Origin: Bartonella apihabitans
GTDB lineage: Bacteria > Pseudomonadota > Alphaproteobacteria > Rhizobiales > Rhizobiaceae
DNA: 64,000 bases
Direction of reading: 5' to 3'
Assembly: GCF_030758755.1 (NCBI RefSeq)
Contig: NZ_CP132387.1
Span: 930,001 to 994,000 of the forward strand
Within the stretch, counting starts at the first letter, position 1; the number at the start of each line of letters is the position of its first letter. The position numbers and the translations under genes were made by a program. Of the stretch, positions 29,758 to 58,984 are shown piece by piece. Below the pieces are notes generated by a model. The model did not search any database, was not told where the DNA came from, and worked only from the letters and a program-made list of their open reading frames with translations.

Positions 29758-31836
29758 TCAAATATCAAGATTATCGGCAAATTCGGCATTGTCTTGTATG
29801 AAATGGAATCGCGCTTCAGGTTTTGAACCCATAAGATCCTCGACAACCTTTTTTGTTTCCTGATTACTTTCGCTATCAATATCAACTCTCAACAAAGTAC
29901 GATTTTTAGGGTCCATTGTTGTCTCTTTGAGTTGATCGGAACGCATTTCTCCCAAGCCTTTGAACCGACCGATTTCGATTTTTCCCCGTCCGGTAAATTT
30001 TGTTTTCAATAATTCGTCTTTATGAGCATCGTCACGCGCATAAGCAACAATTCCGCCTTGTGAAATGCGATATAAAGGAGGAACGGCTAAAAACAGATGT
30101 CCTTTTCGAATGAGTTCAGGCATTTCCTGATAGAAAAAGGTAATCAGCAAAGAAGCAATATGCGCGCCGTCAACGTCCGCATCTGTCATAATGATGATGC
30201 GATCATACCGCAGATCGCTTTCTTTGTATTTCGAGTGGGTACCGCATCCCAGTGCCAAAATGAGATCGGAAATAATCTGATTATTGCTAAGCTTATCGCG
30301 GCCGGCACTGGCAACATTCAAGATTTTTCCTCTTAACGGCAAAACAGCCTGTGTCGCTCGATTGCGCGCTTGTTTCGCCGAACCTCCAGCAGAATCACCT
30401 TCAACAAGGAATAGCTCGGCTCCAGCAGCAGAATTATGTGTACAATCTGCAAGTTTTCCAGGAAGTCGCAATTTGCGAACCGCTGTTTTACGGCTTACCT
30501 CTTTTTCCTGACGTCTTTTGAGCCGTTCTTCGGCTCTGTCTACGACCCAATCGAGAAGTTTTGTCGCTTCTTGTGGTGAATTGGCTAACCAGTGATCAAA
30601 GGGGTCTCGAATAGCATTTTCAACAATCTTTTGTGCTTCCGCCGTAGCTAGCCGGTCTTTAGTCTGCCCGACAAATTCCGGTTCTCGAATAAACACAGAA
30701 AGCATAACGGCAGCAGATATCATAACATCATCTGTCGTAATAACCGATGCACGTTTGTTACCGATCAACTCGGCATAGGCCTTCAATCCCCGCAACAGCG
30801 CCTGTCTCAAACCGGCTTCATGTGTTCCGCCTTCACCGGTAGGGATAGTGTTGCAATAAGAATGGACAAAGCCGTCGCCACCATACCATGTAATGGCCCA
30901 TTCAACCGAACCATGGCCACCGCGTTGTTCAGTCTTCCCTGCAAAAATATCGGAAGTGACCTGGTATTCTCCATTGAGGGATGAACTTAAAAAATCTTTC
31001 AAGCCACCCGGAAAATGAAAAACAGCTTTTTCGGGGATATCATTTTTTCCAGCGAGCTTTTCTGGAGCACAATTCCAACGGATTTCAACACCACCGAAGA
31101 GATAGGCCTTGGAACGAGCCATTTTATATATCAATTCGGGATCAAAAGCAGCTTTCGGACCAAATATTTCTGCATCGGGGTGAAAACGAACGCGCGTGCC
31201 GCGGCGATTATGAACTTCGCCCAAATCCTCAAGTCCTGTTTGCGGAATTCCGCGTGAAAAACGCTGGCGGTAAAGCCGACGTCCACGCGCTACTTCGACT
31301 TCCATGTCATCGGATAAAGCATTAACGACCGATATACCAACACCGTGCAAGCCCCCCGACGTCTCATAAGCTTTTCCGTCGAATTTGCCACCAGAATGAA
31401 GCTGGGTCATAATGACTTCGAGTGTCGACTTATCCGGCATTTGCGGATGGTTTTCAACCGGTATGCCGCGCCCGTTATCCGTAACTGTGAGGTAACCTTC
31501 ATTATCCAGCGTGACATCGATGAAATTGGCGTAACCGGCGACGGCTTCATCCATGGAATTATCGATAACTTCAGCAAATAAATGATGGAGCGCTTTGCTA
31601 TCTGTGCCGCCAATATACATACCGGGCCGCAAACGCACAGGCTCGAGACCTTCCAACACACGAATCGAAGACGCGTCATAGCTATCTTCGGCGTCGGTGG
31701 TGATATTCAGAGACTTCGATGTCTGCTGGTCTTTTTTCCCCGAATTTTCAGTTTTCGAAGGTGAATCGACAAGTTCTTTTACGGTTTCGGTTTGGCTTTG
31801 CAAGTTGCCAAACAGGTCATTATGTTTCTCGTCCAT
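29758..31836 (-). CDS. parE: DNA topoisomerase IV subunit B
   Basis: ATPase subunit of the decatenating topoisomerase. 692 residues: a variable N-terminal tail (about 1-50), then the GHKL ATPase with DNSMDEAVAGYANFI, VTDNGRGIPVENHP and GGLHGVGISVVNALS. The transducer follows, then the TOPRIM domain with LVEGDSAGGSAKQARNR and IMTDADVDGAHIASL, and the end FKGLGEMRSDQLKETTMDP. Called ParE rather than GyrB from its length and overall resemblance to rhizobial ParE; GyrB is usually about 800 residues. ParC is not in the window. Confidence 0.93.
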   Translation of the reverse strand: MDEKHNDLFGNLQSQTETVKELVDSPSKTENSGKKDQQTSKSLNITTDAEDSYDASSIRVLEGLEPVRLRPGMYIGGTDSKALHHLFAEVIDNSMDEAVAGYANFIDVTLDNEGYLTVTDNGRGIPVENHPQMPDKSTLEVIMTQLHSGGKFDGKAYETSGGLHGVGISVVNALSDDMEVEVARGRRLYRQRFSRGIPQTGLEDLGEVHNRRGTRVRFHPDAEIFGPKAAFDPELIYKMARSKAYLFGGVEIRWNCAPEKLAGKNDIPEKAVFHFPGGLKDFLSSSLNGEYQVTSDIFAGKTEQRGGHGSVEWAITWYGGDGFVHSYCNTIPTGEGGTHEAGLRQALLRGLKAYAELIGNKRASVITTDDVMISAAVMLSVFIREPEFVGQTKDRLATAEAQKIVENAIRDPFDHWLANSPQEATKLLDWVVDRAEERLKRRQEKEVSRKTAVRKLRLPGKLADCTHNSAAGAELFLVEGDSAGGSAKQARNRATQAVLPLRGKILNVASAGRDKLSNNQIISDLILALGCGTHSKYKESDLRYDRIIIMTDADVDGAHIASLLITFFYQEMPELIRKGHLFLAVPPLYRISQGGIVAYARDDAHKDELLKTKFTGRGKIEIGRFKGLGEMRSDQLKETTMDPKNRTLLRVDIDSESNQETKKVVEDLMGSKPEARFHFIQDNAEFADNLDI

Positions 31837-32010: not shown

Positions 32011-32970
32011 ATGACAACAGTTTCTGTGGTAAGCCCATTTTATAATGAAGGACACGGTCTTCGACTGTTTGTTGAAAAAGTTGCGCATATTTTTGCCGGT
32101 CTGGATTATGATTTGACGATCATAATGGTAGATGACGGTTCAAAAGATAATAGCTGGTCAAGCTTAAAAGAAATTGTTCCAGAAAAATTCAAACTTTTAG
32201 GCATACGTTTGGCCAAAAACTTCGGGAAAGAAGCCGCTATTGCTGCCGGCCTTTCATTGGCCGATAGTGATGTAGTCATTACGATTGATTGTGATTTGCA
32301 ACACCCTCCAGAATTGATGGAGCCGATGCTCAAATTTTGGGAAGAGGGGGCTGAAATTGTTTTAGCTGTTAAAGAGGAGCGGCAGAAAGAATTGTTTCTC
32401 AACCGGTTGGCAGCCAAGTTTTTTTATAAAATTTTCCAATGGGTTACCGAAAATGATATCGATGGATCGTGTGATTTTATACTTTTGGACCGTAAAGTTG
32501 TCACCGCGTTGAACGCTTTACCAGAAAAACTCTTTTTTTATCGTGGAGTTGTTCAATGGCTTGGTTTCAAGCAAAAAAGCCTTTCATTCATTCCAGCCGA
32601 TCGACAAAACGGAAAAAGTAGTTATTCATTTTGGAAAAAAATCCGACTGGCGGTGGATTCTCTGACGGGTTTTTCAGCAAAACCATTAATTGTTATTTGG
32701 TTTTTAACATTTCTCTTCATGATCTTTGCAACGGTGATTGGAGGAGAAGCCCTAATTTCGAAAATGATGGGAAAGTCGGTTGGCGGGTTTTCCACATTGA
32801 TTTTGGTTGTGCTTATAACAGGCGTCGCAATTCTCTCCTGTTTTTGCGTTCTTTCAGCCTATGTGCGCCAAATATTTTACGAGGTCAAAAATCGTCCGCG
32901 TTATCTCATCAGTGATCAAATTGGTGTGGAGGCAGAATACGGCCGAAAAAAAAGAAAAACTGAAGAATGA
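32011..32970 (+). CDS. Polyprenyl-phosphate glycosyltransferase (GtrB/ArnC/FlmF2-like)
   Basis: Family GT2 enzyme that loads a sugar from a nucleotide donor onto undecaprenyl phosphate at the inner face of the inner membrane. 319 residues: VSVVSPFYNEGHGLRLFVEK, IIMVDDGSKDNSW, KNFGKEAAIAAGL and the metal-binding TIDCDLQHPPELM (near residue 95), then FILLDRKVV and RQNGKSSYSFWKK. Two C-terminal membrane helices follow (about 230-252 and 265-290). The stop overlaps the next gene's ATG by four bases. The sugar cannot be read from the sequence. With the deacetylase next to it I favour an N-acetylhexosamine. Confidence 0.88.
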   Translation: MTTVSVVSPFYNEGHGLRLFVEKVAHIFAGLDYDLTIIMVDDGSKDNSWSSLKEIVPEKFKLLGIRLAKNFGKEAAIAAGLSLADSDVVITIDCDLQHPPELMEPMLKFWEEGAEIVLAVKEERQKELFLNRLAAKFFYKIFQWVTENDIDGSCDFILLDRKVVTALNALPEKLFFYRGVVQWLGFKQKSLSFIPADRQNGKSSYSFWKKIRLAVDSLTGFSAKPLIVIWFLTFLFMIFATVIGGEALISKMMGKSVGGFSTLILVVLITGVAILSCFCVLSAYVRQIFYEVKNRPRYLISDQIGVEAEYGRKKRKTEE

Positions 32971-33866
32971 CGCTATATTGCCTTATGAATGCGGATGATT
33001 TTGCACTGAATTCATCTTGTTCGAATGCCATTATCACTTCGGTAAAAGAGGGAAGACTGCAAGCGACAAGCGTTCTCGCTGGAGGTGAAGATCAGGCAAG
33101 TTACAACGCACTGAACGAGGCGGGCGATGTTTTTATAAACGCACATCTCAACCTTCTGGAAGGAAAAGCCTTGACGGAGGGAGGAAGCGAATTCGGATTA
33201 ACAACTGACGATAACTTTTTTTGTTTATCTTTGGGAGGTTTGTTGAGAAAATTATGGTTTTCGCCAAAAACAAAGTTGCTTCAGGAGTGGATTTATAACG
33301 AATTCTGTTGCCAGATAGATTCCGTTTACAAGCATTTTGACAATAAGAAAATAAGGATTGATGGGCATTTACATATTCATACTTTACCGCCGTTAAAAGG
33401 AGTTATTGAAAAGCTCCTGAATAAATATTCTGTTTGCTACATTCGCACCCCTTATGAAATCGGATATCGCTATAGTCCTTTTTCAATTGAAAATATGAAA
33501 GGTAATTTGCGGCGGCAATTGCTGGGGTGGTGGGCAAAAGATATGACAACTTTGGCCCGACAATATCATCTTGAGACAGCCGATTTCTTTTTGGGGGCGA
33601 CCGCGAGTTGCCGGCTAACTTTGGATGATATCGATAGAGGTTTGGCAATGATATCACGCCAAGCCGGTGGGAAAGACGCAACAATCGAAATAATGATACA
33701 CCCCGTTGTTAAAGGCTTTTCCGGGGGTAGTTTTTATAAAGATAGCCTTTATCGCCCGGCCCACGTAACTCAGGAACGGCAAGAGGAACTGGACCTGTTG
33801 CTATCCGATGAACTTATTCAGGTTATGAAAAAGCATAACGCTGTTTTCATAGATGTGAACAATTAA
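32967..33866 (+). CDS. YdjC/ChbG-family carbohydrate deacetylase (NaxD-like by context)
   Basis: 299 residues, no signal peptide. Metal and catalytic motifs of the YdjC fold are present: MNADDFALN (Asp pair, residues about 10-11), NAHLNLLEGKAL (His), IDGHLHIHTLPPL (second His cluster, near 133) and EIMIHPVVKGF near 247. The family removes N-acetyl groups from sugars; ChbG acts on chitooligosaccharides, whereas Francisella and Bordetella NaxD act on undecaprenyl-linked amino sugars. The 4-base ATGA coupling to a polyprenyl-phosphate glycosyltransferase argues for a NaxD-like role on a lipid-linked sugar. Chitooligosaccharide or other substrates remain possible. Confidence 0.85.
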   Translation: MTLYCLMNADDFALNSSCSNAIITSVKEGRLQATSVLAGGEDQASYNALNEAGDVFINAHLNLLEGKALTEGGSEFGLTTDDNFFCLSLGGLLRKLWFSPKTKLLQEWIYNEFCCQIDSVYKHFDNKKIRIDGHLHIHTLPPLKGVIEKLLNKYSVCYIRTPYEIGYRYSPFSIENMKGNLRRQLLGWWAKDMTTLARQYHLETADFFLGATASCRLTLDDIDRGLAMISRQAGGKDATIEIMIHPVVKGFSGGSFYKDSLYRPAHVTQERQEELDLLLSDELIQVMKKHNAVFIDVNN

Positions 33867-33880
33867 GTTGTTAATTACTT

Positions 33881-34345
33881 TTATGATTTCTTAAAAAAAA
33901 CGGTGTGATTGAGAAAAAAATTGGCAAACAGCCCCGCAATAGATCCGGCTGCAACAGCTAGAAACATAGTTACAGGATTAACTTCGCTAACGCTCTTTAT
34001 GACAGCCATACTTGCGCAATAATTAAAACTGCCGCCGATTGTAGCCAATGCAATATAGGTACTCCAGCCTTTCAGTTTCTTAAAACGCGCTTCACGTCCG
34101 CGAAATGATATTTTGGTGTTGAAGACCCAAGTGAAGGTAGCAGCAATAATAAAAGCTGCTGCTCGTGCGAGCCAAAGGTTTAACCCCGCGGTTTGCAACA
34201 TCCAGAATGTCAAAAAATCAATCCAAAAGGCGATTGCACCAGAACATAAAAACCACAGAATCGTCTTATGTCTTTGGTAGAATTTGATACTACGAACAGC
34301 TATTGCCGTCCTCCAATTATTTTGTCTCGGCGGTGTAATTGTCAT
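33881..34345 (-). CDS. GtrA-family membrane protein (putative lipid-linked sugar flippase)
   Basis: A 154-residue protein with four membrane helices in the GtrA layout: TILWFLCSGAIAFWIDFLTF, LARAAAFIIAATFTWVFNTK, the third helix around YIALATIGGSFNYCASMAV, and FLAVAAGSIAGLFANFFLNH; it ends HTVFFKKS. GtrA proteins are thought to flip polyprenyl-phosphate sugars to the periplasm. Start chosen at ATG 34345, overlapping the upstream membrane glycosyltransferase by 29 bases; an in-frame TTG at 34357 is an alternative. Downstream of lipB and the GtrII-like gene. Confidence 0.85.
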   Translation of the reverse strand: MTITPPRQNNWRTAIAVRSIKFYQRHKTILWFLCSGAIAFWIDFLTFWMLQTAGLNLWLARAAAFIIAATFTWVFNTKISFRGREARFKKLKGWSTYIALATIGGSFNYCASMAVIKSVSEVNPVTMFLAVAAGSIAGLFANFFLNHTVFFKKS

Positions 34346-35867
34346 TATAATGCCCAAGGCACATATTTTTTTTCCCGAGTGATATAAACAGATAATCTCC
34401 TAAATCGAATATCCTGTAATAAGGGGTGGTAATATCCGGTAAAGCGCGGTTAGCGCATAGTTTTGTTACTAATTCATGAGCTTTCGGCGTATCCGACAGA
34501 TTGGTTATGTTATTATAACCGAATTCTTTTAACTGGTTCGAGATTACCCAAGCATTGCCAAAAGGGATTGTAATGGCAACAAGCCGCATTCTGTCCACTG
34601 TCTGTGCAACAAATGGTGATTTTCCTAGTCCACCGATGATTACAGCCGGTTTATCAACAGGATAGCGTTCCAGAGACGTTGCAATGCGTTGAAGATAAAA
34701 GCGGTTTAAATCATTCTGGATTCGCGTTGCGCTATTGACGATATAGCTGAACACAAGCGGGCATAGAAGCAAGAGAAATAATGTCACCCAAATTAATTTT
34801 GTATTGGCGAATGTTCCGATTTTTGCAATGAGCTCGGGTTGCTGGAAACCCGTGATAAAGCGGGATAACAGAAAAACGATCAACACAGAAAAGAAAATCG
34901 ACGCAGGCATAACCCTCGGGGGGACGCCGCTGTCGCCAACAATTCCATATAATACACCGAGTGAAATGGGTAACATAAATAAAAATACAATTGAACAAAT
35001 TGAGGCTCGCAAAACCGGACGATCAAAGTTTGTATCTCTATAAAAGTGCAGTTGAATTTGGACAAATGCGAGACAGATAGCCACTGAATACAATATTTTA
35101 CCGGTAGTGGATAGAAAACCGAAATAACGAGAAAAAACGTTTTCGGTCATAACTGCAAAATAGTGCCAAAAGCTTTTGGAGCCGAAAAAAATAAACTGGC
35201 TTTTTACAGTTGCAAAGTCACGAATGAACAATTTGTCGAATAAATAGGTAGCGATACAAATAAGGGCTGCGAAAACGAGTGCTTTGATCACAAATTTTAC
35301 AGTGGAATAGACGGGTTTTCCGCTATAAATTAGGTATAATCCTTCCGTTATGACAAGAACAATAAACATGTTGATATAGGATTGGTAATACCCCATTGAA
35401 ACAAAGCATAATAATGCTGATTTTAGTTTCGATTGATTGTAGTAGGCCCATCCCAGCAGACTACAGGCGATGCCCATCGCCATAATGACGCAATCAAAAC
35501 GATAGAAAAAAGCCGACAAAAGAAAAGGATTAAAAAGAAAGGTAACGACCAGAACTGCAGTTGTCGCATTGAATGGGATCGCACGTATTTTTAAACTCAA
35601 GCACGTCGAAGTTATTGTTAGAAACAAAGCAGCCAACAAGAAAAAAGGTGACGAGTTGGGCACCGACTGCCAGTCAGCCGAAAGAAAATATGCGAGCAAA
35701 TCTGCGAATGGTCTTCCTAATTCGCTCCAACCCGGTTTTTGTGAGATAAGACGTTCAAAATCATCACGGTAGTAATAGCTCCCGATGACAAGTGGGAAAT
35801 AAAATAAAACAGTAGCTATAGAGGAGGTAATTAAAAACTTTTTTTGGTCTGTATTGTCGCCGATCAT
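34317..35867 (-). CDS. GtrII-like membrane glycosyltransferase (GT-C fold)
   Basis: A 516-residue polytopic protein with about ten or more hydrophobic helices. Its first periplasmic loop holds SYYYRDDFERLI and GWSELGRPFADLL, the acidic DD and GR signatures of the GtrII/GtrC glucosyltransferases that use polyprenyl-phosphate sugars on the periplasmic side. The C-terminal third is a soluble domain (GGLGKSPFVAQTVDRMRLVA region). The acceptor glycan is unknown. It begins 10 bases after lipB and overlaps gtrA, so the three minus-strand genes probably form one operon facing the glycosyltransferase-deacetylase pair. Confidence 0.82.
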   Translation of the reverse strand: MIGDNTDQKKFLITSSIATVLFYFPLVIGSYYYRDDFERLISQKPGWSELGRPFADLLAYFLSADWQSVPNSSPFFLLAALFLTITSTCLSLKIRAIPFNATTAVLVVTFLFNPFLLSAFFYRFDCVIMAMGIACSLLGWAYYNQSKLKSALLCFVSMGYYQSYINMFIVLVITEGLYLIYSGKPVYSTVKFVIKALVFAALICIATYLFDKLFIRDFATVKSQFIFFGSKSFWHYFAVMTENVFSRYFGFLSTTGKILYSVAICLAFVQIQLHFYRDTNFDRPVLRASICSIVFLFMLPISLGVLYGIVGDSGVPPRVMPASIFFSVLIVFLLSRFITGFQQPELIAKIGTFANTKLIWVTLFLLLLCPLVFSYIVNSATRIQNDLNRFYLQRIATSLERYPVDKPAVIIGGLGKSPFVAQTVDRMRLVAITIPFGNAWVISNQLKEFGYNNITNLSDTPKAHELVTKLCANRALPDITTPYYRIFDLGDYLFISLGKKNMCLGHYNDNYTAETK

Positions 35868-35877
35868 AATTTTGAAC

Positions 35878-36609
35878 CTAACGGTTTAAAGAACGTGTTG
35901 GACCAAATATTTTTTCAAAAGTTTTTTTAAGAACAACGTCAACATCTGCCATCGTGACAGGCAAGCCGAGATCAACCAAACTGGTTACTCCATGTTCAGA
36001 TATTCCGCACGGAACAATGCCACTATAATGTGATAAATTCGGCTCCACATTGAGAGCAATTCCATGAAAACTAACCCATTTGCGTAAACGGATACCAATA
36101 GCTGCAATTTTGTCTTCAGCCGGTTCATTTTTTATTGTCGACGGTCTTTCTGGTCTTACGACCCATACGCCAACTCTGTCTTCCCGACGTTCACCCTTAA
36201 TGTTGAATTCGGCAAGAGTTTGTATAATCCACTCTTCCAAAGCTCCGATAAATGCGCGAACGTCTTCCTTTCGTCTCTTTAAGTCAAGCATGACATAAAT
36301 GACACGCTGTCCAGGGCCATGATAGGTAAACTCGCCACCTCTACCCGTTTGGTAAACAGGAAAACGGTCGGGGGCGAGTAGATCGCTTTTTTTTGCACTG
36401 GTTCCAGCGGTATAAATAGGTGGATGTTCCAACAACCAAATGCGTTCATCAGCTTCACCTGAAGCAATTTTAGCAATGCGTTCTTCCATTTCATGAAGAG
36501 CGTAGGGGTAAGGTGTCAATCCATCACTAACCAACCATTCAACTGGATGGGCAGAGGGAACGCTTGGCAAAAAAATATGATTGAGATTTTGACGTATGTT
36601 ATTATTCAT
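35878..36609 (-). CDS. lipB: Octanoyl-ACP:protein octanoyltransferase
   Basis: Moves octanoate from acyl carrier protein to lipoyl domains, the first step of endogenous lipoate synthesis. 243 residues with [40 protein letters not shown], the catalytic Lys in [20 protein letters not shown] and the catalytic Cys in [14 protein letters not shown]. Housekeeping; its link with the two glycan genes downstream is probably only positional. Confidence 0.96.
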
Positions 36610-39161: not shown

Positions 39162-39852
39162 AAAATCATCTCCGTATAAAAACACCATACAGGTGCAGAT
39201 AGGAAAAACTTTGATATTGAAAAGATCTTTATTGCGCTTTTTATGGCTTTTTGTCGGTGACAAGAAAAAATTGATTCAAGTAACTTATCAGGTGCCTGAT
39301 CTTCGATGGCACGCTGATTCTATGGTCGATATCCAGTTTCATGAAAAGCCGGCAAGGAATCATGATCGATCGTGATTAATTTGAAGCCAAATAATCGCTT
39401 ACCCCATCTAACGCGAAAACTTCTGATTATGTTGTTAATATTCTTTGTTGGATGAAATTTTTACGAAGTTGGATTCTATTGTTACGAATCCCCGACCGCT
39501 GAATTCTTGTAAACAAATTCGCTCTTCCCAGATTCATCAATCACTCAAGAGTGGATATCCAGCTCGTCTGCGTTTTAAAGCGCAAATTGAAACGCTCGTA
39601 AGGGCTCAAAAACTTTATCATTGAATGAGAAAACGAAGTCGTAGTCTATCGGAGACTAGAACTCTGGAAAGTCACCTCTTTATTACCGATTTCATTGGGG
39701 GGTTTCTTCGGTCTCAATCAAATATGTGCAAGAGTTGGGTAAACTTGGTTCACGAGGGCCAATAATTGACGATATATACTTGCCTAGCCAACGGCCTTAA
39801 TGCACGTTGATACCATATCCTGAATATAATTATCTGTGCGAGGTATGATGCA
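39162..39852. other. Intergenic region before the decayed island
   Basis: About 690 bases. The left end holds the lemA promoter. No gene seen. A stretch at 39652-39667 matches part of the 3' half of the tRNA-Val gene at 13 of 16 bases (gagactagaactctgg against gagactcgaactcccg), a weak candidate for the far attachment scar of the island. Confidence 0.35.
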
Positions 39853-40413
39853 ATGTGGATTAACTTCGGCGCATTTATTGCAGCATCACTGACAGCAATA
39901 TCAACTATAATATTGAGTTGGATGACGTACATTCTTGCTAAAGAAACTAAGGTTCTTGCGAGGATGACCTCAAAGGCTTTTGTTATCACCTATTTAGAGT
40001 CTACAGAAGTTACCAATGAAGCCATGAATATTGTTATCCATAACACAGGTAATGCCCCGGCGTTTAATGTATCAGTAAGAATAACCCCAGCTATGCCAAA
40101 TTATTCTCACCCAAGCAGCATGGCAACAGAAACAAGTTACGAAGTACTTCTAATACCTCCAACTACTAAATAGTCAATATACGGAGTGGCTTTAAAAGAA
40201 ATGGGCGCCACCCTTTACGAAGTCAGTGTGAGTTGGTCCGACCCCCCCAAGGGGTCTGTACGAGAACCAATTTCTTATCAAATTAAACCCAAAAATCAAA
40301 TAAAAGGTGGGTGGATAATTAAAGGTATCCATAATGTAGCGACTGAATTAGAAAAGTTGACGAATGAGGTAAAAAAATTAACGACAAAATCCATTAGCTT
40401 TAAAGAGGCATAG
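39853..40413 (+). pseudogene. Small membrane protein interrupted by an in-frame TAG
   Basis: One open frame of 187 codons is split by a single amber codon at 40171-40173. The first part has a membrane helix (FGAFIAASLTAISTIILSWM), then a soluble region with MNIVIHNTGNAPAFNVSVRI that looks immunoglobulin-like. The second part continues the fold (MGATLYEVSVSWSDPPKG) and ends in a charged helix LEKLTNEVKKLTTK. Both halves have good protein character and share one frame, so a CAG or similar codon probably mutated. I do not know the function. A second start at GTG 40186 might give a separate short product. Confidence 0.65.
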
Positions 40414-40484
40414 TCTTTTAAGAATAGAAAACCTCTGAGGCATCACATCTCGCAGGTCTGGGACACTCCCCCATATAGCAAGCT

Positions 40485-40745
40485 TTAACTCACTTTCTTT
40501 CCATCTATGTAGATATTAAGACGGACAAGCGAAGGACGTGTTGCTGCTGTGTTTACACGTACCGAGAACCCCTTGCGGATGATGAGTTCTATCATTTCAC
40601 GTTCCGTCTTAACCGTGACTTGGTTTTTTTTGAGGTGTTTCTTCTTCCCGAAAGCCGGGTCGCCTAGCACATAAAACCCATTTTCTATATAAGGATATTG
40701 TTCGGTTTTAGTCTTTGGGTCTAGTCTATATACACGTTTGCTCAT
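40485..40745 (-). CDS. Hypothetical basic protein, 86 residues
   Basis: Starts at ATG 40745, seven bases after AGGAGA, which fixes the start (MSKRVYRLDPKTKTEQYPYI). The protein is basic, contains KKKHLKKNQVTVKTEREMIE and ends RLNIYIDGKKVS, with no Cys, no signal and no membrane segment. The charged N-terminal half and beta-like end suggest a nucleic-acid or phage-type protein, but I do not recognise a family. It is the only apparently intact gene in the decayed island. Confidence 0.6.
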   Translation of the reverse strand: MSKRVYRLDPKTKTEQYPYIENGFYVLGDPAFGKKKHLKKNQVTVKTEREMIELIIRKGFSVRVNTAATRPSLVRLNIYIDGKKVS

Positions 40746-40969
40746 GCATAGTTCTCCTATATTTTCGTATTTATTGCACGTATCAGGTTTCTTTCGAAAA
40801 AAAACACTACGTATAACATGCAAGATAATGCCTTAACGTGTCTCTTTAAACGTCTCATAAAAGTTTTCTTATAAATTCTAAGGAAATATGAGCATGATTG
40901 ATCAACAACACAAATCCAACAAACATAAGCGCAACGCAAGGCAATGGTGAAGAAAAGAGAGCGGAAAAG

Positions 40970-41344
40970 CGGATCTCGTATATCCCGGTTTCATCAACTG
41001 GACAGAGTCGTGAAGTCTAGCGAAACAAGATGCCGTCTCTTGGTATTTATTAAAAAAATATCTTTGAGGAAAAATATTCTGGTGTAGGCGGCAACTGTCC
41101 AGCTCTTGAGGGAACAATAATGTTTGTCCGAAAGGAAAATTTTTTGTTATCATCATGATTGACCACTTGGCGAGATCAGCAACGGACCTTCTTTCCATCG
41201 TTCACCAGCTGGAACGGAAAAGCGTCCAGTTGCGTGTTGTCGATCAGACTATTGTTTTTCATCTTGGCAATCAAATTCCTTTCAGAGGCTTTCTGTGAAG
41301 GTTTTCTTGGACAGTGTAGGTTTTTTGCGTACCGCCTTAGGTAG
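40970..41344 (+). pseudogene. Serine recombinase (resolvase/invertase) remnant
   Basis: Pieces of a Tn3-type resolvase appear in order on the plus strand but in different frames. ISYIPVSSTGQSREV (about 40973-41017) matches the GYARVST-GQ start with the catalytic Ser. IFEEKYSGVGGNCPAL and MFVRKE (41060-41158) match the EEK-SG and RPALKAAL-VRKGD segment. MIDHLARSATDLLSIVHQLE then RKSVQLRVVDQ (41155-41235) matches the LDRLARS helix region. FLGQCRFFA (about 41298-41324) matches the FLGML-VFAEFE segment. Several frameshifts and stops show it is long dead. The C-terminal DNA-binding part is not recognisable. Confidence 0.78.
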
Positions 41345-41784
41345 AACCATCGGAAGAAGGAAAGTGGTGAATAGCAATCAACCGAAATAAGAGACTACTG
41401 AGAGGCGTTAAGTGTTCCGTTGGTGAATTTAATAAGCAAGCTCTATAATCACACTCAGTGGCTCTCTACAACGTTTTATTCATTTTGCCTATGCGTCTCA
41501 AAGTTAGGAATAAACGAGGTAGGGGGAGAATTTGGTGCGACTTTTTGCATTTGTCAGTATATAGACAAATGAACAAACACGGGAGCTTTTGAACTGGCGT
41601 TTCAATTACTACCTCATCAAAGTGAGCAACCTCATTGAGACATTTTACTTAACATTTTAATAAACAGTTTAACAAACATGTTATTGAGTGTTAATTCTAA
41701 TCGGGTGAACGAAGTGGATGGCCTCCCACATATTATTCTTTCTCAGTCTTTCTCATGTTCAACTCTCCTATCTTTTCCCGCTAC

Positions 41785-43087
41785 CCCCCCAGATCTCGCA
41801 CGATAAGGAATGAACGAATCTTTGCCATTTCCTTGGGGAGGTTAGGAAACCTCGCATGATTGCCACCATATTGGTGGTCAGCTCTACCAGATGAATAGTC
41901 TGTCAGAGATAGAGGAGCGGCATCCGAAAGCCCTCCCTCAATTCATACATACATAAATCTTCAGATTGATGTCGCCTGCCGTGGGGATGGTGCCAGGCGT
42001 TCCCGCTCAAAACTTAGCGTGTTTCTGGTCCATCCTGAGATATTGGCTTGGGAGCGTGTAGGAAATGAGCGGGTATATTGTTTGAACGTTTGATAAGCTC
42101 TATTAGTCCTTCTTGCGAGAGATCAGGAAGGTCAGGGATTGTTCTTTCACTGCTTGCCGTATTGAGTGTTCTGGCTCCGATGGTTGTCAGCGTGTAGAAT
42201 CATAACCCGTAAACCTGTAAAAAGCCGAAAGGGGTCAATTGAGCAAGTTCGTTGATTCTTGCGCCCAAATAAGGGCTGAGCCAAAGAGATCACCTTTTGT
42301 TATTGCTTATCTCTTTTCTGTCCGCAAGCAAGACGCTTCTTGTCTTCCATCGTGTAAGCGCGTTTATCACTCGGCGCCGTCTGATAACCCGGCTTCTCTT
42401 TTTCAGAATCCTAGCCCGTGAAACACCGACTTTGACGCTATTCAATCTATTACCGCTGGCTTCTGTTTCCAACGATCTGTTTTTTTCAAAGAATCATTAC
42501 GCTAAGATTGGACCTCAAGCGGCATTATTGCGGCGACAATAGCACTTTTCTAAACTCTGCATACTCATTATCAGTAAGACGATATTTCCCGATCGTAATT
42601 GGTCGAATAGGTTTCGAGTCCCGGCCAATGTTTCACTGTTTCTCTTTGTTATCAATGACAGCATTGAAGGAAGGGGGGGGTAATAGCGTTGTTACGGTCG
42701 TTGTTAGATGCCGTGTTCTCTGGTAACGTAGGGGAACGAGATCAGGATACTTCGTCATGAATCCTGTTTCGGAATAGTCTCCTTCGGGCTTCCTTAGATT
42801 GATTGCTGCCATGTCATTCAAAGCGTGGGCACAATGCCTTATAAAATGGAACCGTGGCTTGCATGCCATTGTGATGATTGGTTTAGCAACGCTCCGTTTG
42901 CTATTGCTCAAAATGCCTTTCCAAGTCAGCTTCGATAGTGTCTAGGTCGTTGGGTACAATTTTGAGAGCGCTAAGCTTGCCTTGTTGTGATGATATTTAC
43001 CTCAAGAACGTCGCGGCACATGTCAGGATGAACATGATTCTCGTTATACGCCTCAATGAGGGCATTGGGTATAGGACCAGCCAACAC
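41785..43087 (-). pseudogene. Phage-type tyrosine integrase remnant beside tRNA-Val
   Basis: Read on the minus strand, fragments line up as one large integrase of the type with a long N-terminal region. PNALIEAYNENHVHP and LDTIEADLERHFEQ (43087-42901) are followed by FIRHCAHALNDMAAINLRKP with EGDYSE (near 42830-42750). Next come SLWLSPYLGARINELAQL (near 42290-42240; compare WLP-LGLYTGARINEIAQL), TIGARTLNTASSERTIPDLP (near 42190-42130; compare LKTAASERTIPIHPDL) and, at the end, DHQYGGNHARFPNLPKEMAK (near 41885-41820; compare the Arg-Tyr-Gly C-terminus of integrases). Stops and frameshifts break it many times. The assignment is from memory of such integrases and needs a profile search. Confidence 0.6.
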
Positions 43088-43384
43088 AAATGATTACTTA
43101 TTAGTGCAACTTTTTAGGGTCCTTTCTAACAGTCCTAAAGTATGCTATCAGGTCGGCGTAGTCTCCGTGAAGTGTCTCTTGGCTGTCGCGGTGTCAGAAG
43201 AATTGTCTGCGCCATAAACTCATTTTATCGGGTCGGCCGAAATTTTGACATGTAAATTGTATTTCTGGTTAATTGTGACACGGGGCGTCAGGGGGATTCT
43301 TTATAACGCACTCTTCCTGTGTGCCACGTGGTCAGCGGGAAGTGCAACGAATAGAAATAACTCGATGAAATCAATTGAAAATTT

Positions 43385-51485: not shown

Positions 51486-52525
51486 ATGGGTGATTTCTTT
51501 ATGACCTGGCTGCTTCCCCTGCTGATTATCGTCGGCAAAGCGGTACTGCTTTTGGTAGTTTTGTTGATTATCATCGCATATCTACTTTACGCCGATAGAA
51601 AGATTTGGGCCGCTGTTCAATTGCGGCGTGGGCCAAATGTTGTGGGCCTTGGGGCTTGTTTCAATCTTTTGCGGATTTGATCAAATTCGTTGTTAAAGAA
51701 CCGATCATACCGGCAGGAGCAAATAAGGGCGTGTTTTTGCTTGCGCCGTTCATTTCTTCTACATTGGCGTTATCGGCGTGGGCTGTTGTGCCGGTGAGTG
51801 AAGGTTGGGCAGTTGCAAGCATCAATATCGGACTGCTTTATATTCTAGCTATATCTTCACTTGAAGTTTATGGCGTGATCATGGGGGGGTGGGCTTCCAA
51901 CTCGAAATATCCTTTCTTGGGTGCTTTGCGTTCTACCGCTCAAATGGTCTCTTATGAAGTTTCGATAGGCTTTGTTCTGGTAACCGTTATTCTGGTGAGC
52001 GGTTCGCTTGACCTGACAACGATTGTTAATGGACAGAAAGCGGGTCTTGGTACAAATATTGGACTGCCGTTCAATACATTCCTTGATTGGAATTGGTTGG
52101 CTCTATTTCCGATGTTTATCATCTTCTTTGTTTCTGCCTTAGCTGAAACAAATCGTCCACCGTTCGATTTGGTAGAAGCTGAATCCGAGCTTGTTGCCGG
52201 CCATATGATTGAATATTCTTCAACGCCTTATATGTTGTTTTTCCTTGGGGAATATGTCGCAATCGTCCTTATGTGCGCACTGACAACCATTCTGTTCATG
52301 GGTGGATGGCTACCACCTCTGGATGTCTGGTGGCTTAACTGGGTGCCCGGGATTATCTGGTTTGTGCTCAAAGTATGCTTTGTTTTCTTCTGGTTTGCCA
52401 TGGTGAAAGCATTTGTTCCTCGCTACCGCTATGACCAGCTAATGAGATTGGGTTGGAAAGTATTCCTGCCGATTTCACTCGCAATGGTTGTTATTACGGC
52501 AGCTTATTTGAAACTTGTAAGTTGA
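51486..52525 (+). CDS. nuoH: NADH-quinone oxidoreductase subunit H (frame fault at 51644-51648)
   Basis: Membrane subunit forming the quinone entry channel. The frame from 51486 gives the first helix and [20 protein letters not shown], then goes wrong. The continuation [19 protein letters not shown] is one base out of phase and intact to 52525. Adding one base to GGGCC at 51644-51648 restores GTG GGC CCT TGG (V-G-P-W), the family's strictly conserved GPNVVGPWGL, and a protein of about 347 residues with the later hallmark [20 protein letters not shown] and [18 protein letters not shown]. All neighbouring nuo genes are intact, so a real loss is unlikely. Confidence 0.92.
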
Positions 52526-52536
52526 AGGTGAAGAAT

Positions 52537-53028
52537 ATGTCTGGTCTTTTTAGAGCTGCCAAGTCACTTCTTCTGATAGAGTTCTGGAGTGCATTTTGGC
52601 TGTCCATGCGCCAGTTTGTTGCTCCGAAACCGACGATCAACTATCCTTATGAGAAGGGAGTTGTCTCTCCTCGCTTTCGTGGTGAACACGCATTGCGCCG
52701 TTATCCGAATGGCGAAGAACGTTGTATTGCATGTAAATTATGCGAGGCGATTTGTCCGGCACAAGCTATTACCATCGAAGCAGGACCTCGTCGTAATGAC
52801 GGCACCCGTCGCACAGTTCGTTACGACATAGATATGGTTAAATGTATTTATTGTGGCTTTTGTCAGGAAGCCTGTCCGGTTGAAGCAATTGTTGAAGGTC
52901 CGAACTTCGAGTTTGCTACCGAAACACGGGAGGAACTTTATTATGACAAAGAAAAACTGCTTTCGAACGGAGACCGTTGGGAACGTGAAATAGCGCGGAA
53001 TATTGCTATGGACGCACCTTATCGGTGA
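52537..53028 (+). CDS. nuoI: NADH-quinone oxidoreductase subunit I
   Basis: Ferredoxin-like subunit with clusters N6a and N6b. 163 residues from ATG 52537 ([20 protein letters not shown]); two CxxCxxCxxxCP motifs are visible, [12 protein letters not shown] (near residue 66) and [12 protein letters not shown] (near 105). The open frame extends upstream within nuoH but that part is meaningless. Confidence 0.98.
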
Positions 53029-53124
53029 GTTTGGAGAAATCGTGTGATCGCGTTTATCGACGCGATTTAAGATAAATCGGCGTAATTTTTTGCGTCATCT
53101 TTTGGTTTAACTTAGGGGAAACCA

Positions 53125-53745
53125 ATGTTAACAGGTATAGCAGCGGCATTCTTTTATTTGTTCGCTTTCATTATGCTGGCTAGCGCAGTTATGGTTGTTG
53201 CCGCGCGTAATCCGGTGCATTCGGTGTTGTTTCTCATTCTGGCGTTCTTTAACGCGGCAGCATTGTTCATTTTGACCGGAGCAGAATTTCTAGGCCTCAT
53301 CTTAGTGGTTGTTTATGTCGGCGCAGTCGCAGTGTTGTTCTTGTTCGTCGTGATGATGCTTGATGTGGATTTTGCCGAATTGAAAAGTGGTGCGTTGAAA
53401 TATGCTCCTATCGGCGCTCTTGTCGGAATAATTATAGCTGTAGAACTGATTGTCGTTTTTGGAAGTTCGTATTTCTCTCCAACACTGGCAGAACATGTTA
53501 CCGAGCCAATGCCAAGTCTGGCACAGCGTACAAATACACAGGCTTTGGGTGACATTCTCTACACCGATTATGTTTTCTACTTCCAACTCGCCGGCTTGGT
53601 ATTGCTTGTGGCGATGATTGGGGCGATCGTTTTGACATTGCAACATCGTGCAGGCGTAAAAAGGCAATCAATCTCGAAACAGGTTGCCAGAATGCCTGAA
53701 GACACGATGGAAATTAAAAAAGTTAAATCTGGTAAAGGTATTTAA
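53125..53745 (+). CDS. nuoJ: NADH-quinone oxidoreductase subunit J
   Basis: Membrane subunit with five helices; 206 residues. Conserved parts are [40 protein letters not shown] and [18 protein letters not shown] (helix 3 region with the pi-bulge glycines). The C-terminal 30 residues are a charged tail. Confidence 0.95.
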
Positions 53746-53758
53746 CGGGAAGAATAAT

Positions 53759-54067
53759 ATGCACATTGAAATTGCTCACTATCTGACCGTTTCTGCATTG
53801 TTGTTCACAATTGGTGTCTTTGGCATTTTTCTGAACAGAAAAAACGTCATTATTATACTGATGTCGATTGAGCTCATATTGCTTTCAGTCAATTTAAATT
53901 TTGTGGCCTTTTCTTCGGTCTTGCACGATCTTGTAGGGCAAGTATTTGCGCTCTTTGTGCTGACCGTAGCTGCAGCAGAAGCTGCAATCGGCTTGGCTAT
54001 TCTGGTTGTGTTCTATCGTAATCGCGGTTCGATTGCGGTCGAAGATGTTAACGTGATGAAAGGCTGA
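53759..54067 (+). CDS. nuoK: NADH-quinone oxidoreductase subunit K
   Basis: 102 residues, three helices: [40 protein letters not shown] (conserved membrane Glu) and [20 protein letters not shown] (second Glu of the proton path). Start at ATG 53759 after GGGAAGAA. Confidence 0.97.
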
Positions 54068-54073
54068 CGCGTT

Positions 54074-56038
54074 ATGTTTTACGCTATTGTCTTCCTACCT
54101 ATTTTAGGCTTTTTCATTGCCGGATTGGGTGGAAAAACGCTGGGAGCCCGCGCCGCCGAACTGGTGACCTGTACCTTTATGGTAATTGTCGCTGTTCTTT
54201 CATGGATAGCATTTTTCGATATTGCTATTGGAAGCGGGCAAACTGTTGATGTTCCAATATTCCATTGGATTAAAGTGGGAGGCTTGCAATTTGATTGGGC
54301 TTTGCACATTGATGCTCTGACGGCGGTGATGCTGATCGTTGTCAACACAGTTTCTGCATTGGTTCATATTTATTCTATCGGCTATATGCATAACGACCCG
54401 TCACGGCCAAGATTTTTTGCTTACCTGTCGTTTTTTACGTTCATGATGTTGATGCTGGTCACATCGAACAATCTGGTTCAACTCTTCTTCGGATGGGAAG
54501 GCGTCGGTCTAGCGTCATATCTGTTGATCGGTTTTTGGTATCAACGTCCCTCGGCATGTGCTGCCGCAATCAAAGCGTTCGTCGTAAACCGGGTAGGGGA
54601 CTTCGGATTTCTGATCGGTGTATTCAGCGTTTTTGTTCTGTTCAAATCGGTCAGTTTCAATACAATTTTTTCACGAGCCGCCGATCCGAGTTTCGTTCAG
54701 CAAATGACTTTTCTCAGCTGGCAGGTTGATGGCAACAAAGCAATAACAGTTGCATGTCTATTTCTTTTTGTCGGTGCAATGGCCAAGTCGGCACAATTCT
54801 TCCTGCATACATGGTTGCCTGATGCTATGGAGGGGCCAACACCGGTTTCGGCGCTTATTCACGCCGCCACGATGGTTACCGCGGGCATATTCATGGTTAC
54901 ACGTATGTCGCCGATTTTCGAGCTTGCTCCGACCGCTCAGACAGTCATTGTGATTATTGGTGCGACAACCGCATTTTTTGCCGCCACTGTCGGTTTGGTA
55001 CAAAACGATATCAAGCGTGTGATTGCCTATTCTACCTGTTCTCAATTAGGTTATATGTTTGTGGCACTTGGTGTCGGCGCTTACAGTGCGGGCGTCTTCC
55101 ATTTGTTCACTCACGCATTTTTCAAAGCATTGCTCTTTCTCGGGGCAGGTTCGGTCATTCACGCAGTTTCCGACGAACAAGATATGCGGAAAATGGGTGG
55201 TTTGCGGAAATTTATTCCGACTACCTATTGGATGATGATTATCGGAACGCTCGCTCTGACCGGTGTCGGTATTCCAGGAACGGTCTTCGGTACAGCCGGC
55301 TTTTTCTCTAAAGATGGTATTATTGAATCAGCATTTGCTTCCCATAATGTGGCGAGCGGCTATGCATTCTGGTTGCTTGTTATCGCTGCGTTGTTTACGA
55401 GCTTCTATTCGTGGCGTCTGATTTTCCTGACATTCCACGGCAAGCCGCGGGCAACAGCAGATATTATGCACCATGTTCATGAATCGGGATCGGTAATGAT
55501 TGTGCCGTTGATTGTTCTGGCGATCGGTGCAGTTTTTGCCGGTGTTATTTTCCAGCCATATTTTTCCGGTGAATTATACGATGCTTTTTGGAAAGGCGCG
55601 ATATTTACCGGTGCTGAAAATCATATCCTTCATGACGCTCATGGCGTTCCTGTATGGGTGAAATGGTCGCCATTCGTAGTAATGGTTGTCGGGTTTGTAT
55701 TGGCTTATCTTTTTTACATTGTTGCAACTGCCATTCCAAAGGCATTGGCCAACGCATTTCCCTTCCTTTACCGTTTTCTACTCAACAAATGGTATTTTGA
55801 TGAACTTTATAACGTAGTGTTTGTCCGCTCGGCTTTTGTAATTGGTCGCTTCTTCTGGAAGGTGGGAGACGGAAAGATTATCGATGGCCTTGGCCCGAAT
55901 GGCGTTGCGGCCCGCGTTGTAGACATAACCAATAAGGTGGTTCGTATGCAGACTGGGTATCTGTATCATTACGCATTCGCGATGCTGATCGGTATCGCTG
56001 CGCTCATCACCTGGATGATGATCGGGAGCTTAAACTGA
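54074..56038 (+). CDS. nuoL: NADH-quinone oxidoreductase subunit L
   Basis: Distal antiporter-like proton pump. 654 residues, many helices, with [20 protein letters not shown] (channel Glu), [36 protein letters not shown] and [18 protein letters not shown]. The long lateral helix lies in the C-terminal part. Confidence 0.97.
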
Positions 56039-57507
56039 TGACCGACTGGCCTATTCTTTCTACGGTCACATTTTTGCCGCTTGTTGGCGTTGTTCTGATC
56101 CTTTTGATCAAGGACGATGGTGAAACAGCAAAACGCAATATTCGTAATGTGGCACTTTTTACGACTTTGTTCGTATTTGTATTGTCCCTCATCATCTGGG
56201 CTGGATTTGATAACAATAACTCCGGATTCCAGATGGAAGAGCGGATTGGTTGGCTTGGTGGTGGCATAAACTACCATATGGGCGTTGACGGAATTTCGGT
56301 TTTGTTCGTTGTCCTTTCAGGTTTTCTTATGCCGCTTTGCGTTCTGGCTAGCTGGGAAACCGTTAAAGACCGTTTAAAAGCGTATATGATTGCATTTCTT
56401 CTTCTTGAAGTTGCGGTTATTGGTGTTTTCTGCGCTCTTGATGCTGTCTTGTTCTACGTATTCTTCGAGGGAAGTCTGATTCCGATGTTCATTATCATCG
56501 GTGTCTGGGGTGGTCCAAGGCGAGTCTATGCAAGCTTGAAATTCTTCTTGTATACATTTTTGGGATCGGTACTTATGCTGGTCGCCATTATGGTCATGTA
56601 CTGGCAAGCTGGTACACTCGATATTCCGACGCTTCTGCACTATAAATTTCCAGCTCATATGCAATTCTGGTTATGGTTCGCATTCTTTGCATCTTTTGCT
56701 GTAAAAATGCCAATGTGGCCGGTTCATACATGGCTGCCGGATGCCCACGTTGAAGCTCCTACAGCCGGATCGGTAATTTTGGCCGGTATCCTGTTGAAGC
56801 TGGGCGGTTACGGTTTCATACGTTTTTCATTACCTATGTTTCCGGTTGCTTCAGCCGACTTGGCACCCTTTGTTTTCACTCTGTCGTTGATCGCTATTAT
56901 TTATACCTCTCTGGTCGCACTCGTTCAGGAAGATATGAAAAAACTGATTGCCTATTCATCTGTCGCCCATATGGGATATGTGACAATGGGTATTTTTGCG
57001 GCCAATGAACAAGGTATTCAAGGCGCGATCTATCAGATGCTTTCTCATGGTATCGTTTCCGCTGCTCTGTTCCTGTGCGTCGGCGTTATTTACGATCGGC
57101 TGCATACCAGAGAGATTGCAGCATTTGGCGGTCTTGCTAACAATATGCCGAAATATGCTGTTGCCTTCATGGTTTTCACAATGGCTAACATAGCTCTTCC
57201 GGGTACGTCGGGATTCCTCGGTGAATTCCTGACCTTAATCGGCGTATTCCAGGTCAATAGCTGGGTTGCTATCATTGCTACGACCGGCGTTATTTTGTCT
57301 GCGTCTTATGCGCTTTATCTTTACCGCCGTGTTATCTTTGGAAAACTCGACAAGGAAAGTTTGAAGGCTCTTCTTGATTTGTCACCGCGGGAGAAATTCA
57401 TCCTATATCCGATGATTGTTCTTACCGTATTTTTCGGTTTCTATCCGACGCCGGTTCTCAATACTACGGCTGCGGCAGTAGAAGCTCTTGTTAACCAGCT
57501 GCACTAA
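56038..57507 (+). CDS. nuoM: NADH-quinone oxidoreductase subunit M
   Basis: Antiporter-like proton pump, 489 residues, with [20 protein letters not shown] (conserved Glu), [40 protein letters not shown] and [16 protein letters not shown]. Its ATG shares one base with the nuoL stop (TGATG). Confidence 0.97.
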
Positions 57508-57521
57508 AGAGGCGAAGGTCC

Positions 57522-58979: not shown

Positions 58980-58984
58980 GCGAG

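What the first reader, a model, noticed from the sequence alone, without database searches (positions are those of the whole stretch)
32011..35867. Candidate amino-sugar decoration system: GtrB-like + YdjC-like pair facing GtrII-like + GtrA-like pair
Four adjacent genes give every step of a lipid-carrier sugar-modification pathway. A GT2 enzyme with two C-terminal helices loads undecaprenyl phosphate. A YdjC-fold deacetylase is coupled to it by a 4-base ATGA overlap. A GtrA-type flippase and a GtrII-type GT-C transferase with the Y-RDD and GR-FAD loop complete it. Known parallels are ArnC-ArnD-ArnT (L-Ara4N on lipid A) and Francisella FlmF2-NaxD-FlmK (galactosamine on lipid A), where deacetylation of the lipid-linked sugar exposes a positive charge. 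Here the last two steps use GtrA/GtrII proteins known from O-antigen glucosylation, a mixture I do not recall being described. Prediction: a free amino sugar is placed on lipid A, core or another envelope glycan, reducing sensitivity to cationic host peptides.
Basis: partly seen in the sequence, partly recalled or inferred. Interest (0 to 1): 0.72.

Follow-up and report, generated by a model that had tools for sequence, protein, structure and literature searches.

The report
Bartonella clade amino-sugar decoration gene cassette
One Bartonella clade that includes a honey-bee gut species carries a compact four-gene set that probably attaches a positively charged sugar to its outer envelope; the parts are known kinds, but this combination with a GtrII-type transferase appears unusual.

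Summary
The four genes are real, at the stated coordinates, and belong together: a GtrB-like GT2, a YdjC deacetylase sharing 4 bases with it, a GtrA flippase-type protein and a GtrII-type GT-C. Putative catalytic residues are invariant in 11 of 11 intact orthologues; dN/dS is about 0.1 for each gene. The cassette lies between parE and lipB in 13 of 71 Bartonella genomes, one clade. In 57 of 57 testable genomes without it parE and lipB are adjacent. Two carriers are decaying; one, of the window's species, has lost most of YdjC and all of GtrA.
Acceptor and peptide resistance are untested. The novelty claim needs trimming: contiguous GT2+YdjC+GtrA+GT-C sets occur in 6 of 43 other YdjC regions (five genera), with PMT, PMT_2, YfhO or GT87 transferases. 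Distinctive here is the GtrII partner; no other adjacent GtrII–YdjC pair was seen, in a sparse sample. I file it as a new variant of a known kind: a shared deacetylating core with an interchangeable final transferase.

The parts
32011..32970 (+). GT2 polyprenyl-phosphate glycosyltransferase, GtrB-like, two C-terminal membrane helices (by alignment with GtrB)
   Evidence: PF00535 1.8e-29; best solved relatives GtrB-type sll0501 2.2e-56, ArnC 6.6e-31; NCBIfam PgfS 204.7 bits and ArnC-type model 130.9 bits, both below their cut-offs
32967..33866 (+). YdjC-family deacetylase, 4-base ATGA overlap with the GT2 gene
   Evidence: PF04794 6.9e-31; D10, D11, H60, D132, H134, H136, H138, H245 invariant in 11 of 11; only solved relative at E<=0.01 is chitooligosaccharide deacetylase 7vi8, 2.4e-4
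33881..34345 (-). GtrA-type membrane protein, predicted flippase for the lipid-linked sugar (alternative TTG start at 34357)
   Evidence: PF04138 5.7e-14; starts
34317..35867 (-). GtrII-type GT-C transferase; overlaps the GtrA gene by 29 bases
   Evidence: PF14264 5.8e-18; YYRDD and GRPFAD invariant in 11 of 11; overlap
29758..31836 (-). left boundary: ParE-like type II topoisomerase subunit B, housekeeping flank (not part of the pathway)
   Evidence: PF00204 and others; flank of the cassette in 13 of 13 carriers (12, and the window)
35878..36609 (-). right boundary: LipB lipoyl ligase, housekeeping flank, 10 bp upstream of the GtrII start
   Evidence: PF21948 2e-36; flank in 13 of 13 carriers (12, and the window); adjacent to parE in 57 of 57 testable genomes without the cassette

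Best explanation
The four genes encode one envelope-glycan decoration pathway. The GT2 loads an N-acetylhexosamine onto undecaprenyl phosphate at the inner face of the inner membrane. The YdjC enzyme, translationally coupled to it, removes the acetyl group from the lipid-linked sugar. GtrA helps move the lipid-linked amino sugar to the periplasmic face. The GtrII-type GT-C transfers it to an envelope acceptor, adding a positive charge. Shown here: family membership, intact active-site residues, conserved arrangement, purifying selection, single-clade distribution at one site, and decay touching both gene pairs in two genomes. Inferred: substrate, order of steps, acceptor (LPS core or lipid A most likely, perhaps 0.4 to 0.5) and any effect on cationic peptides.
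For: Domain hits. GT2 is closest among solved proteins to GtrB sll0501 and then ArnC, both polyprenyl-phosphate glycosyltransferases (established knowledge). Putative metal and catalytic residues invariant in 11 of 11. 4-base overlap in 11 of 11. YdjC, GtrII and the cassette GT2 occur in the same 13 of 71 genomes and GtrA in 12 of those 13, between parE and lipB in each (and the window). dN/dS medians 0.095 GT2, 0.134 YdjC, 0.118 GtrA, 0.123 GtrII, from 18, 15, 18 and 14 of 55 pairs, the others being saturated. The same four functions sit contiguously in six other genomes (five genera) with other GT-C families, which suggests that they are repeatedly brought together (inference). Published parallels: NaxD, a YdjC-superfamily enzyme, deacetylates undecaprenyl-phosphate-linked N-acetylgalactosamine (PMC11279074, passages); Bordetella lgmA-C are needed for lipid A glucosamine (PMC4993483, passages).
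Against: No biochemistry and no glycan structure. YdjC-family enzymes also act on soluble chito-oligosaccharides (ChbG annotation). The GT-C is GtrII and gave no PMT/ArnT Pfam hit, so lipid A is not the default acceptor. Genome G194 keeps a 99%-identical GT2 after losing most of YdjC and all of GtrA; this should trap undecaprenyl phosphate and be costly, judging by the gtrA, gtrS and arnD entries in PMC12826051 (table passage), so the GT2 may be silent, the loss recent, or the GT2 used otherwise. Most YdjC-GT2 neighbourhoods sampled have no GtrA hit (19 of 26 with a GT2). The cassette YdjC and GT2 sit on long branches without a resolved sister. The structure prediction never finished.
Confidence: 0.68

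Rival explanations
1. The pathway is complete, but the acceptor is not LPS: it decorates a surface or periplasmic protein or another polymer, as in PgfS-type protein glycosylation (recalled) or YfhO-type polymer glycosylation (recalled).
For: The best NCBIfam match of the GT2 is PgfS, 204.7 bits, below its cut-off of 500. Comparable four-gene sets elsewhere use YfhO or GT87 transferases. No sequence feature names the acceptor.
Against: GtrII and related Gtr transferases with a reported role were linked to O-antigen: gtrA/B/II in Pseudomonas donghuensis (PMC8509367, passages) and P22 gtrABC (annotation).
Confidence: 0.3
2. Two unrelated pairs: GT2+YdjC make or modify one glycolipid and GtrA+GtrII are remnants of a serotype-conversion cassette that lost its GtrB; they are neighbours only by history.
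For: The pairs are convergent, on opposite strands. A GtrA-GT2-GtrII cassette without YdjC exists (L183). GT2 and YdjC together without a GtrA hit are common (19 of 43 other YdjC regions).
Against: All four are kept together under purifying selection in 11 intact copies. A GtrII transferase needs a GtrB-type donor (established for gtr cassettes), and this GT2 is GtrB-like. GT2+YdjC+GtrA+GT-C sets recur elsewhere. Both decayed copies are damaged in both pairs.
Confidence: 0.12
3. YdjC is a soluble chito-oligosaccharide or hopanoid-type deacetylase (ChbG or HpnK) and the other three genes form an ordinary glucosylation cassette.
For: Weak ChbG-model (73.1 bits) and HpnK-model (52.4 bits) matches; the only solved relative found is a chito-oligosaccharide deacetylase.
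Against: Both scores are far below cut-off (227 and 232.6); the neighbours are parE, lipB and the cassette genes; a conserved 4-base overlap with the GT2 gene.
Confidence: 0.1

Closest known systems
Francisella FlmF2-NaxD-FlmK (galactosamine on lipid A)
   Same: Glycosyltransferases FlmF2 and FlmK tied to lipid A galactosamine, and NaxD, a YdjC-superfamily deacetylase of undecaprenyl-phosphate-linked N-acetylgalactosamine (passages in PMC4688374 and PMC11279074; primary NaxD paper not held)
   Different: FlmK is ArnT-like (recalled); here the GT-C is GtrII-family and a GtrA gene is present; acceptor unknown; not sequence-compared here
Bordetella lgmABC(D) (glucosamine on lipid A phosphates)
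   Same: Locus in which lgmA-C are all needed for glucosamine on lipid A; a fourth gene, lgmD, is dispensable (PMC4993483, passages); that LgmA is a GT2 and LgmC a YdjC protein is recalled
   Different: The locus encodes an ArnT-type transferase (PMC5454989, passages); not sequence-compared here
gtrA-gtrB-gtr(type) O-antigen glucosylation cassettes (P22, Hafnia phage Meifeng, E. coli yfdGHI)
   Same: GtrA, GtrB-like GT2 and a GtrII-family or similar GT-C
   Different: No deacetylase, single co-directional set, phage or prophage setting; here two convergent pairs in a housekeeping site
Unnamed GT2+YdjC+GtrA+GT-C sets in other Pseudomonadota (G470, G224, G639, G676, G769, G772)
   Same: All four functions, contiguous
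   Different: GT-C is PMT_2, PMT, YfhO, PMT_2, GT87 and GT87 respectively instead of GtrII
ArnC-ArnD-ArnT (L-Ara4N on lipid A)
   Same: Lipid-linked sugar loaded, N-deformylated, then transferred (E. coli arn annotation)
   Different: ArnD is not YdjC-family (recalled), ArnT is not GtrII (recalled), and arnA/arnB-type sugar-making genes are absent from the cassette

Membership tests
YdjC-type sugar deacetylase | PF04794 domain with the ADDxx, H and DxHxHxH residues of the metal site (ligand roles recalled) | tested here: met
   108.5 bits against cut-off 29.7; D10, D11, H60, D132, H134, H136, H138 invariant in 11 of 11 and shared with E. coli ChbG. The usual ADDFG reads ADDFA in all 11 copies
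YdjC-type sugar deacetylase | Deacetylase activity | not testable with these tools
gtrABC O-antigen glucosylation cassette | GtrA, GtrB-like GT2 and Gtr-type GT-C present | tested here: met
   PF04138, PF00535 with closest solved relative GtrB, PF14264
gtrABC O-antigen glucosylation cassette | Three co-directional genes without a deacetylase, usually in a phage or prophage | tested here: not met
   Two convergent pairs plus YdjC between parE and lipB. Only distant phage relatives of GtrII (50 records, all under 60% identity); no confirmed relative of GtrII or YdjC in viral contigs
ArnCDT / FlmF2-NaxD-FlmK / LgmABC lipid A amino-sugar pathways | Undecaprenyl-phosphate GT2 plus deacetylase or deformylase | tested here: met
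   By family only; YdjC like NaxD, not ArnD
ArnCDT / FlmF2-NaxD-FlmK / LgmABC lipid A amino-sugar pathways | ArnT/PMT-family final transferase | tested here: not met
   Only PF14264 hit for the GT-C protein at E<=0.01, no PMT hit
ArnCDT / FlmF2-NaxD-FlmK / LgmABC lipid A amino-sugar pathways | Acceptor is lipid A phosphate | not testable with these tools
   Needs lipid A mass spectrometry
HpnK hopanoid deacetylase | TIGR03473 above cut-off | tested here: not met
   52.4 bits against 232.6
ChbG chitin disaccharide deacetylase | PRK02134 model above cut-off, chb operon context | tested here: not met
   73.1 bits against 227; neighbours are parE, lipB and the cassette genes

The most novel reading that the evidence does not exclude
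GT2 + YdjC + GtrA is a general, portable core that produces a flipped, de-N-acetylated lipid-linked hexosamine, onto which evolution plugs any GT-C family (PMT, PMT_2, YfhO, GT87 or GtrII), so that the same cationic sugar is sent to different envelope acceptors. The Bartonella cassette is the GtrII form, acquired once by the ancestor of one clade and now being lost strain by strain, which would make it a lineage-specific, host-linked surface switch.
Probability: 0.35. Interest if true: 0.66.

Novelty: new variant of a known kind. Interest (0 to 1): 0.48.

Why it matters
If right, a Bartonella clade that includes a honey-bee gut species has a dedicated way to put a positive charge on its envelope, absent from the 57 other Bartonella genomes that could be tested. 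It predicts the chemistry of an envelope glycan for which the listings of two paper searches showed no structure, it gives natural loss strains within and near one species for comparison, and a related species can be engineered (PMC11389375, passages). It also suggests that known amino-sugar and O-antigen systems are versions of one modular scheme, so that the acceptor would be read from the GT-C partner.

Tried and rejected
ChbG and HpnK readings of YdjC: scores far below cut-off. Mobile origin: no plasmid match for YdjC at E<=1e-5; GtrII matched 4 plasmid and 50 phage records, all under 60% identity, and most of the listed ones that are annotated are glucosyltransferase or gtr genes; viral-contig scans with two short patterns each confirmed no relative. 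Foreign base composition: GC 40 to 42% against 43 to 48% in ten comparison genes, but GC3 0.36 to 0.42 lies inside their 0.32 to 0.48, so no clear sign. Donor lineage: GT2 and YdjC trees give long stems; Bartonella GT2 was sister to a group holding phage GtrB at 84/81, but the neighbours changed without ten rows (five long ones and a distant clade of five). Promoter-like sites 13 found against 12.4 in shuffles, terminator-like 2 against 5.6. The genome-contig scan gave only 3 loci. The paper looked up for YdjC metal ligands (PMC12017989) concerned another family and PMC6281622 did not mention YdjC. PMC7716237 mentions a YdjC-like protein in an exopolysaccharide cluster, not comparable. PMC9600256 gave no mention of M0177, and PMC9927164 reports lipid A glucosamine in Achromobacter without the gene names searched for.
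Full report
WHAT IS THERE. That B. apihabitans lives in the honey-bee gut is recalled; a listing (PMC10924886) has the name in a honey-bee gut survey. The hosts of the other carriers are not known to me. Four genes lie between parE and lipB: GT2 (32011-32970 +), YdjC (32967-33866 +), GtrA (33881-34345 -) and GtrII-type GT-C (34317-35867 -). Pfam supports each clearly, and the flanks are ParE-like and LipB. The GT2 aligns nearly end to end with solved GtrB sll0501 (E 2.2e-56) and less closely with ArnC (6.6e-31). No solved relative was found by sequence for GtrII or GtrA. For YdjC the only one is a chito-oligosaccharide deacetylase (7vi8).

ACTIVE SITES. In 11 of 11 intact orthologues the YdjC residues D10, D11, H60, D132, H134, H136, H138 and H245 are invariant. 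They are shared with E. coli ChbG, and D10, D11, H60 and H134 together are kept in 36 of the 42 other YdjC proteins aligned (of 43 found; the fragment L210 was left out); five exceptions carry E at the H134 column (one of these also has a gap at D10 and D11), and one more has a gap at D10 and D11. That D11, H60 and H134 bind the metal and D10 is the base is recalled. One oddity: the common ADDFG motif reads ADDFA in all 11 Bartonella copies, against A at that column in 3 of the 42 others. The GT2 keeps its DDGS and D-DLQ acidic motifs and the GtrII protein its YYRDD and GRPFAD motifs in 11 of 11; across eight diverse GtrII-type proteins D35, D36, R39, W47 and R52 are invariant.

ORGANISATION. 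The GT2 and YdjC genes overlap by four bases in all 11 intact copies (ATGA in 10, GTGA in one), as expected for translational coupling. GtrA and GtrII overlap by 29 bases in the window; in the ten others the spacing runs from a 29-base overlap to a 29-base gap, depending on the start called. GtrII begins 10 bp after the lipB stop, so the right-hand pair may be read from the lipB promoter, while the left-hand pair starts 174 bp from parE, divergently (inference; the promoter scan was no richer than shuffled sequence).

DISTRIBUTION IN BARTONELLA. Of 71 genus genomes, YdjC was found in 13 and GtrII in 13, the same genomes. GtrA was found in 13, but one of these (G216, E 5.6e-4, 27% identity, several stops) looks like a chance match, so 12; G194 has none. 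The GT2 search gave 14, of which 13 hold the cassette gene and one (G206) only a paralogue. In all 13 carriers (12, plus the window) the genes lie between parE and lipB. Of the 58 genomes without the cassette, 57 could be tested and all 57 have parE and lipB directly adjacent, with roughly 50 to 100 bp between them. The remaining one, G206, is an 86% complete draft whose contig breaks inside lipB. A LipB+ParE tree (FastTree, midpoint root) puts the 13 carriers and G206 in one clade of 14 with support 1.0. A single gain in the ancestor of this clade is the simplest reading.

DECAY. G194, labelled the same species as the window, keeps the GT2 at 99% identity, but a deletion of about 1.2 kb (reckoned from the coordinates) has removed YdjC after about residue 43, all of GtrA and the end of GtrII. 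G153 has its GT2, YdjC and N-terminal GtrII reading frames interrupted, with GtrA open. The other 11 carriers have all four open. Among these the dN/dS medians are 0.095 (GT2), 0.134 (YdjC), 0.118 (GtrA) and 0.123 (GtrII), using 18, 15, 18 and 14 of 55 pairs; the rest were saturated and dropped. So the set is under purifying selection but dispensable in some strains.

OUTSIDE BARTONELLA. In the 150 other genomes of a family sample the single-protein YdjC search found three weak matches (E 1e-3 to 2e-5; their surroundings were not examined) and the GtrII search none. With profiles, YdjC matched 17 of 385 class genomes and 31 of 284 phylum genomes, and GtrII 3 of 385 and 3 of 284, own genome included each time; the two samples overlap. 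I fetched the surroundings of all 43 distinct non-Bartonella YdjC genomes from the two profile searches, some cut by contig ends, and searched them with profiles of the four Bartonella proteins (the GtrA profile enriched with two others). A GT2 of this type was in 26 of 43 and a GtrA in 7 of 43. In 6 of 43 there is a contiguous set of GT2, YdjC, GtrA and a multi-span GT-C: L140/G470, L143/G224, L187/G639, L205/G676, L208/G772 and L209/G769, the last two of one genus in Bartonella's own family. Their GT-C proteins match PMT_2, PMT, YfhO, PMT_2, GT87 and GT87, and Pfam confirms GtrA in all six. None of the 43 regions had a GtrII by the Bartonella-built profile, and none of the four GtrII regions fetched (three genomes) had a YdjC; one of these is a plain GtrA-GT2-GtrII cassette (L183/G754). 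One genome, G245, does hold both a YdjC and a GtrII, but about 245 kb apart. Caveats: the profile is narrow and could miss distant GtrII proteins, and only a few hundred genomes were sampled.

MECHANISM. NaxD is described as a YdjC-superfamily enzyme acting on undecaprenyl-phosphate-linked N-acetylgalactosamine (PMC11279074, passages), and lgmA-C as needed for lipid A glucosamine (PMC4993483, passages). GtrA/B/II were linked to O-antigen glucosylation in Pseudomonas donghuensis (PMC8509367, passages). Against a firm lipid A claim: the transferase gave no PMT/ArnT hit. A useful side prediction: blocking late steps while GT2 works should trap undecaprenyl phosphate (gtrA, gtrS and arnD are listed so in PMC12826051, table passage), so a strain such as M0177 should either silence or soon lose its GT2; G153 has already lost the integrity of its own.

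NOVELTY. In the library searches made, no paper held YdjC together with GtrA or GtrII (14 papers, none with YdjC), and the listings (20 of 305 papers; 12 of 292; 2 of 2), with the passages I read from them (PMC7716237, PMC11279074, PMC9927164, PMC12826051), did not describe this combination; most subscription papers are not held. Given the six related sets with other transferases, I file it as a new variant of a known kind rather than something categorically new.

Noticed in passing
G000:C3:1488000-1502000 (locus L217 3097-7273), outside the window: A second lipid-carrier glycosylation locus in the same genome: UDP-glucose/GDP-mannose dehydrogenase family protein, PMT_2-type GT-C, and, on the opposite strand, a LAB_N protein plus a 243-aa GT2. 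This GT2 or a like one matched in 13 of 71 Bartonella genomes: 12 of the 13 cassette carriers and G206. It may add an acidic sugar; not followed further.
   Followed up: partly
L037 6698-9312 (G194, Bartonella sp. M0177) and L039 6159-10010 (G153, B. apihabitans BBC0178): Two different decays of the cassette in close relatives: a deletion of about 1.2 kb removing most of YdjC, all of GtrA and the end of GtrII, and interrupted frames in GT2, YdjC and GtrII.
   Followed up: yes
39264-43384: About 4 kb with no ORF of 150 aa or more, between a LemA gene and a tRNA-Val / tRNA-Asp pair upstream of nuo-like genes; no Rfam family other than the two tRNAs reached its gathering score in the window. Possibly decayed genes.
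   Followed up: partly
52000-59000: Strong AT skew (down to about -0.29); one ORF there was confirmed as a NADH-quinone oxidoreductase subunit. Probably just T-rich codons of membrane proteins.
   Followed up: partly
Alignment A1, residue 13 of YdjC: All 11 Bartonella YdjC copies read ADDFA where most YdjC proteins aligned have G in the last place; effect unknown.
   Followed up: no
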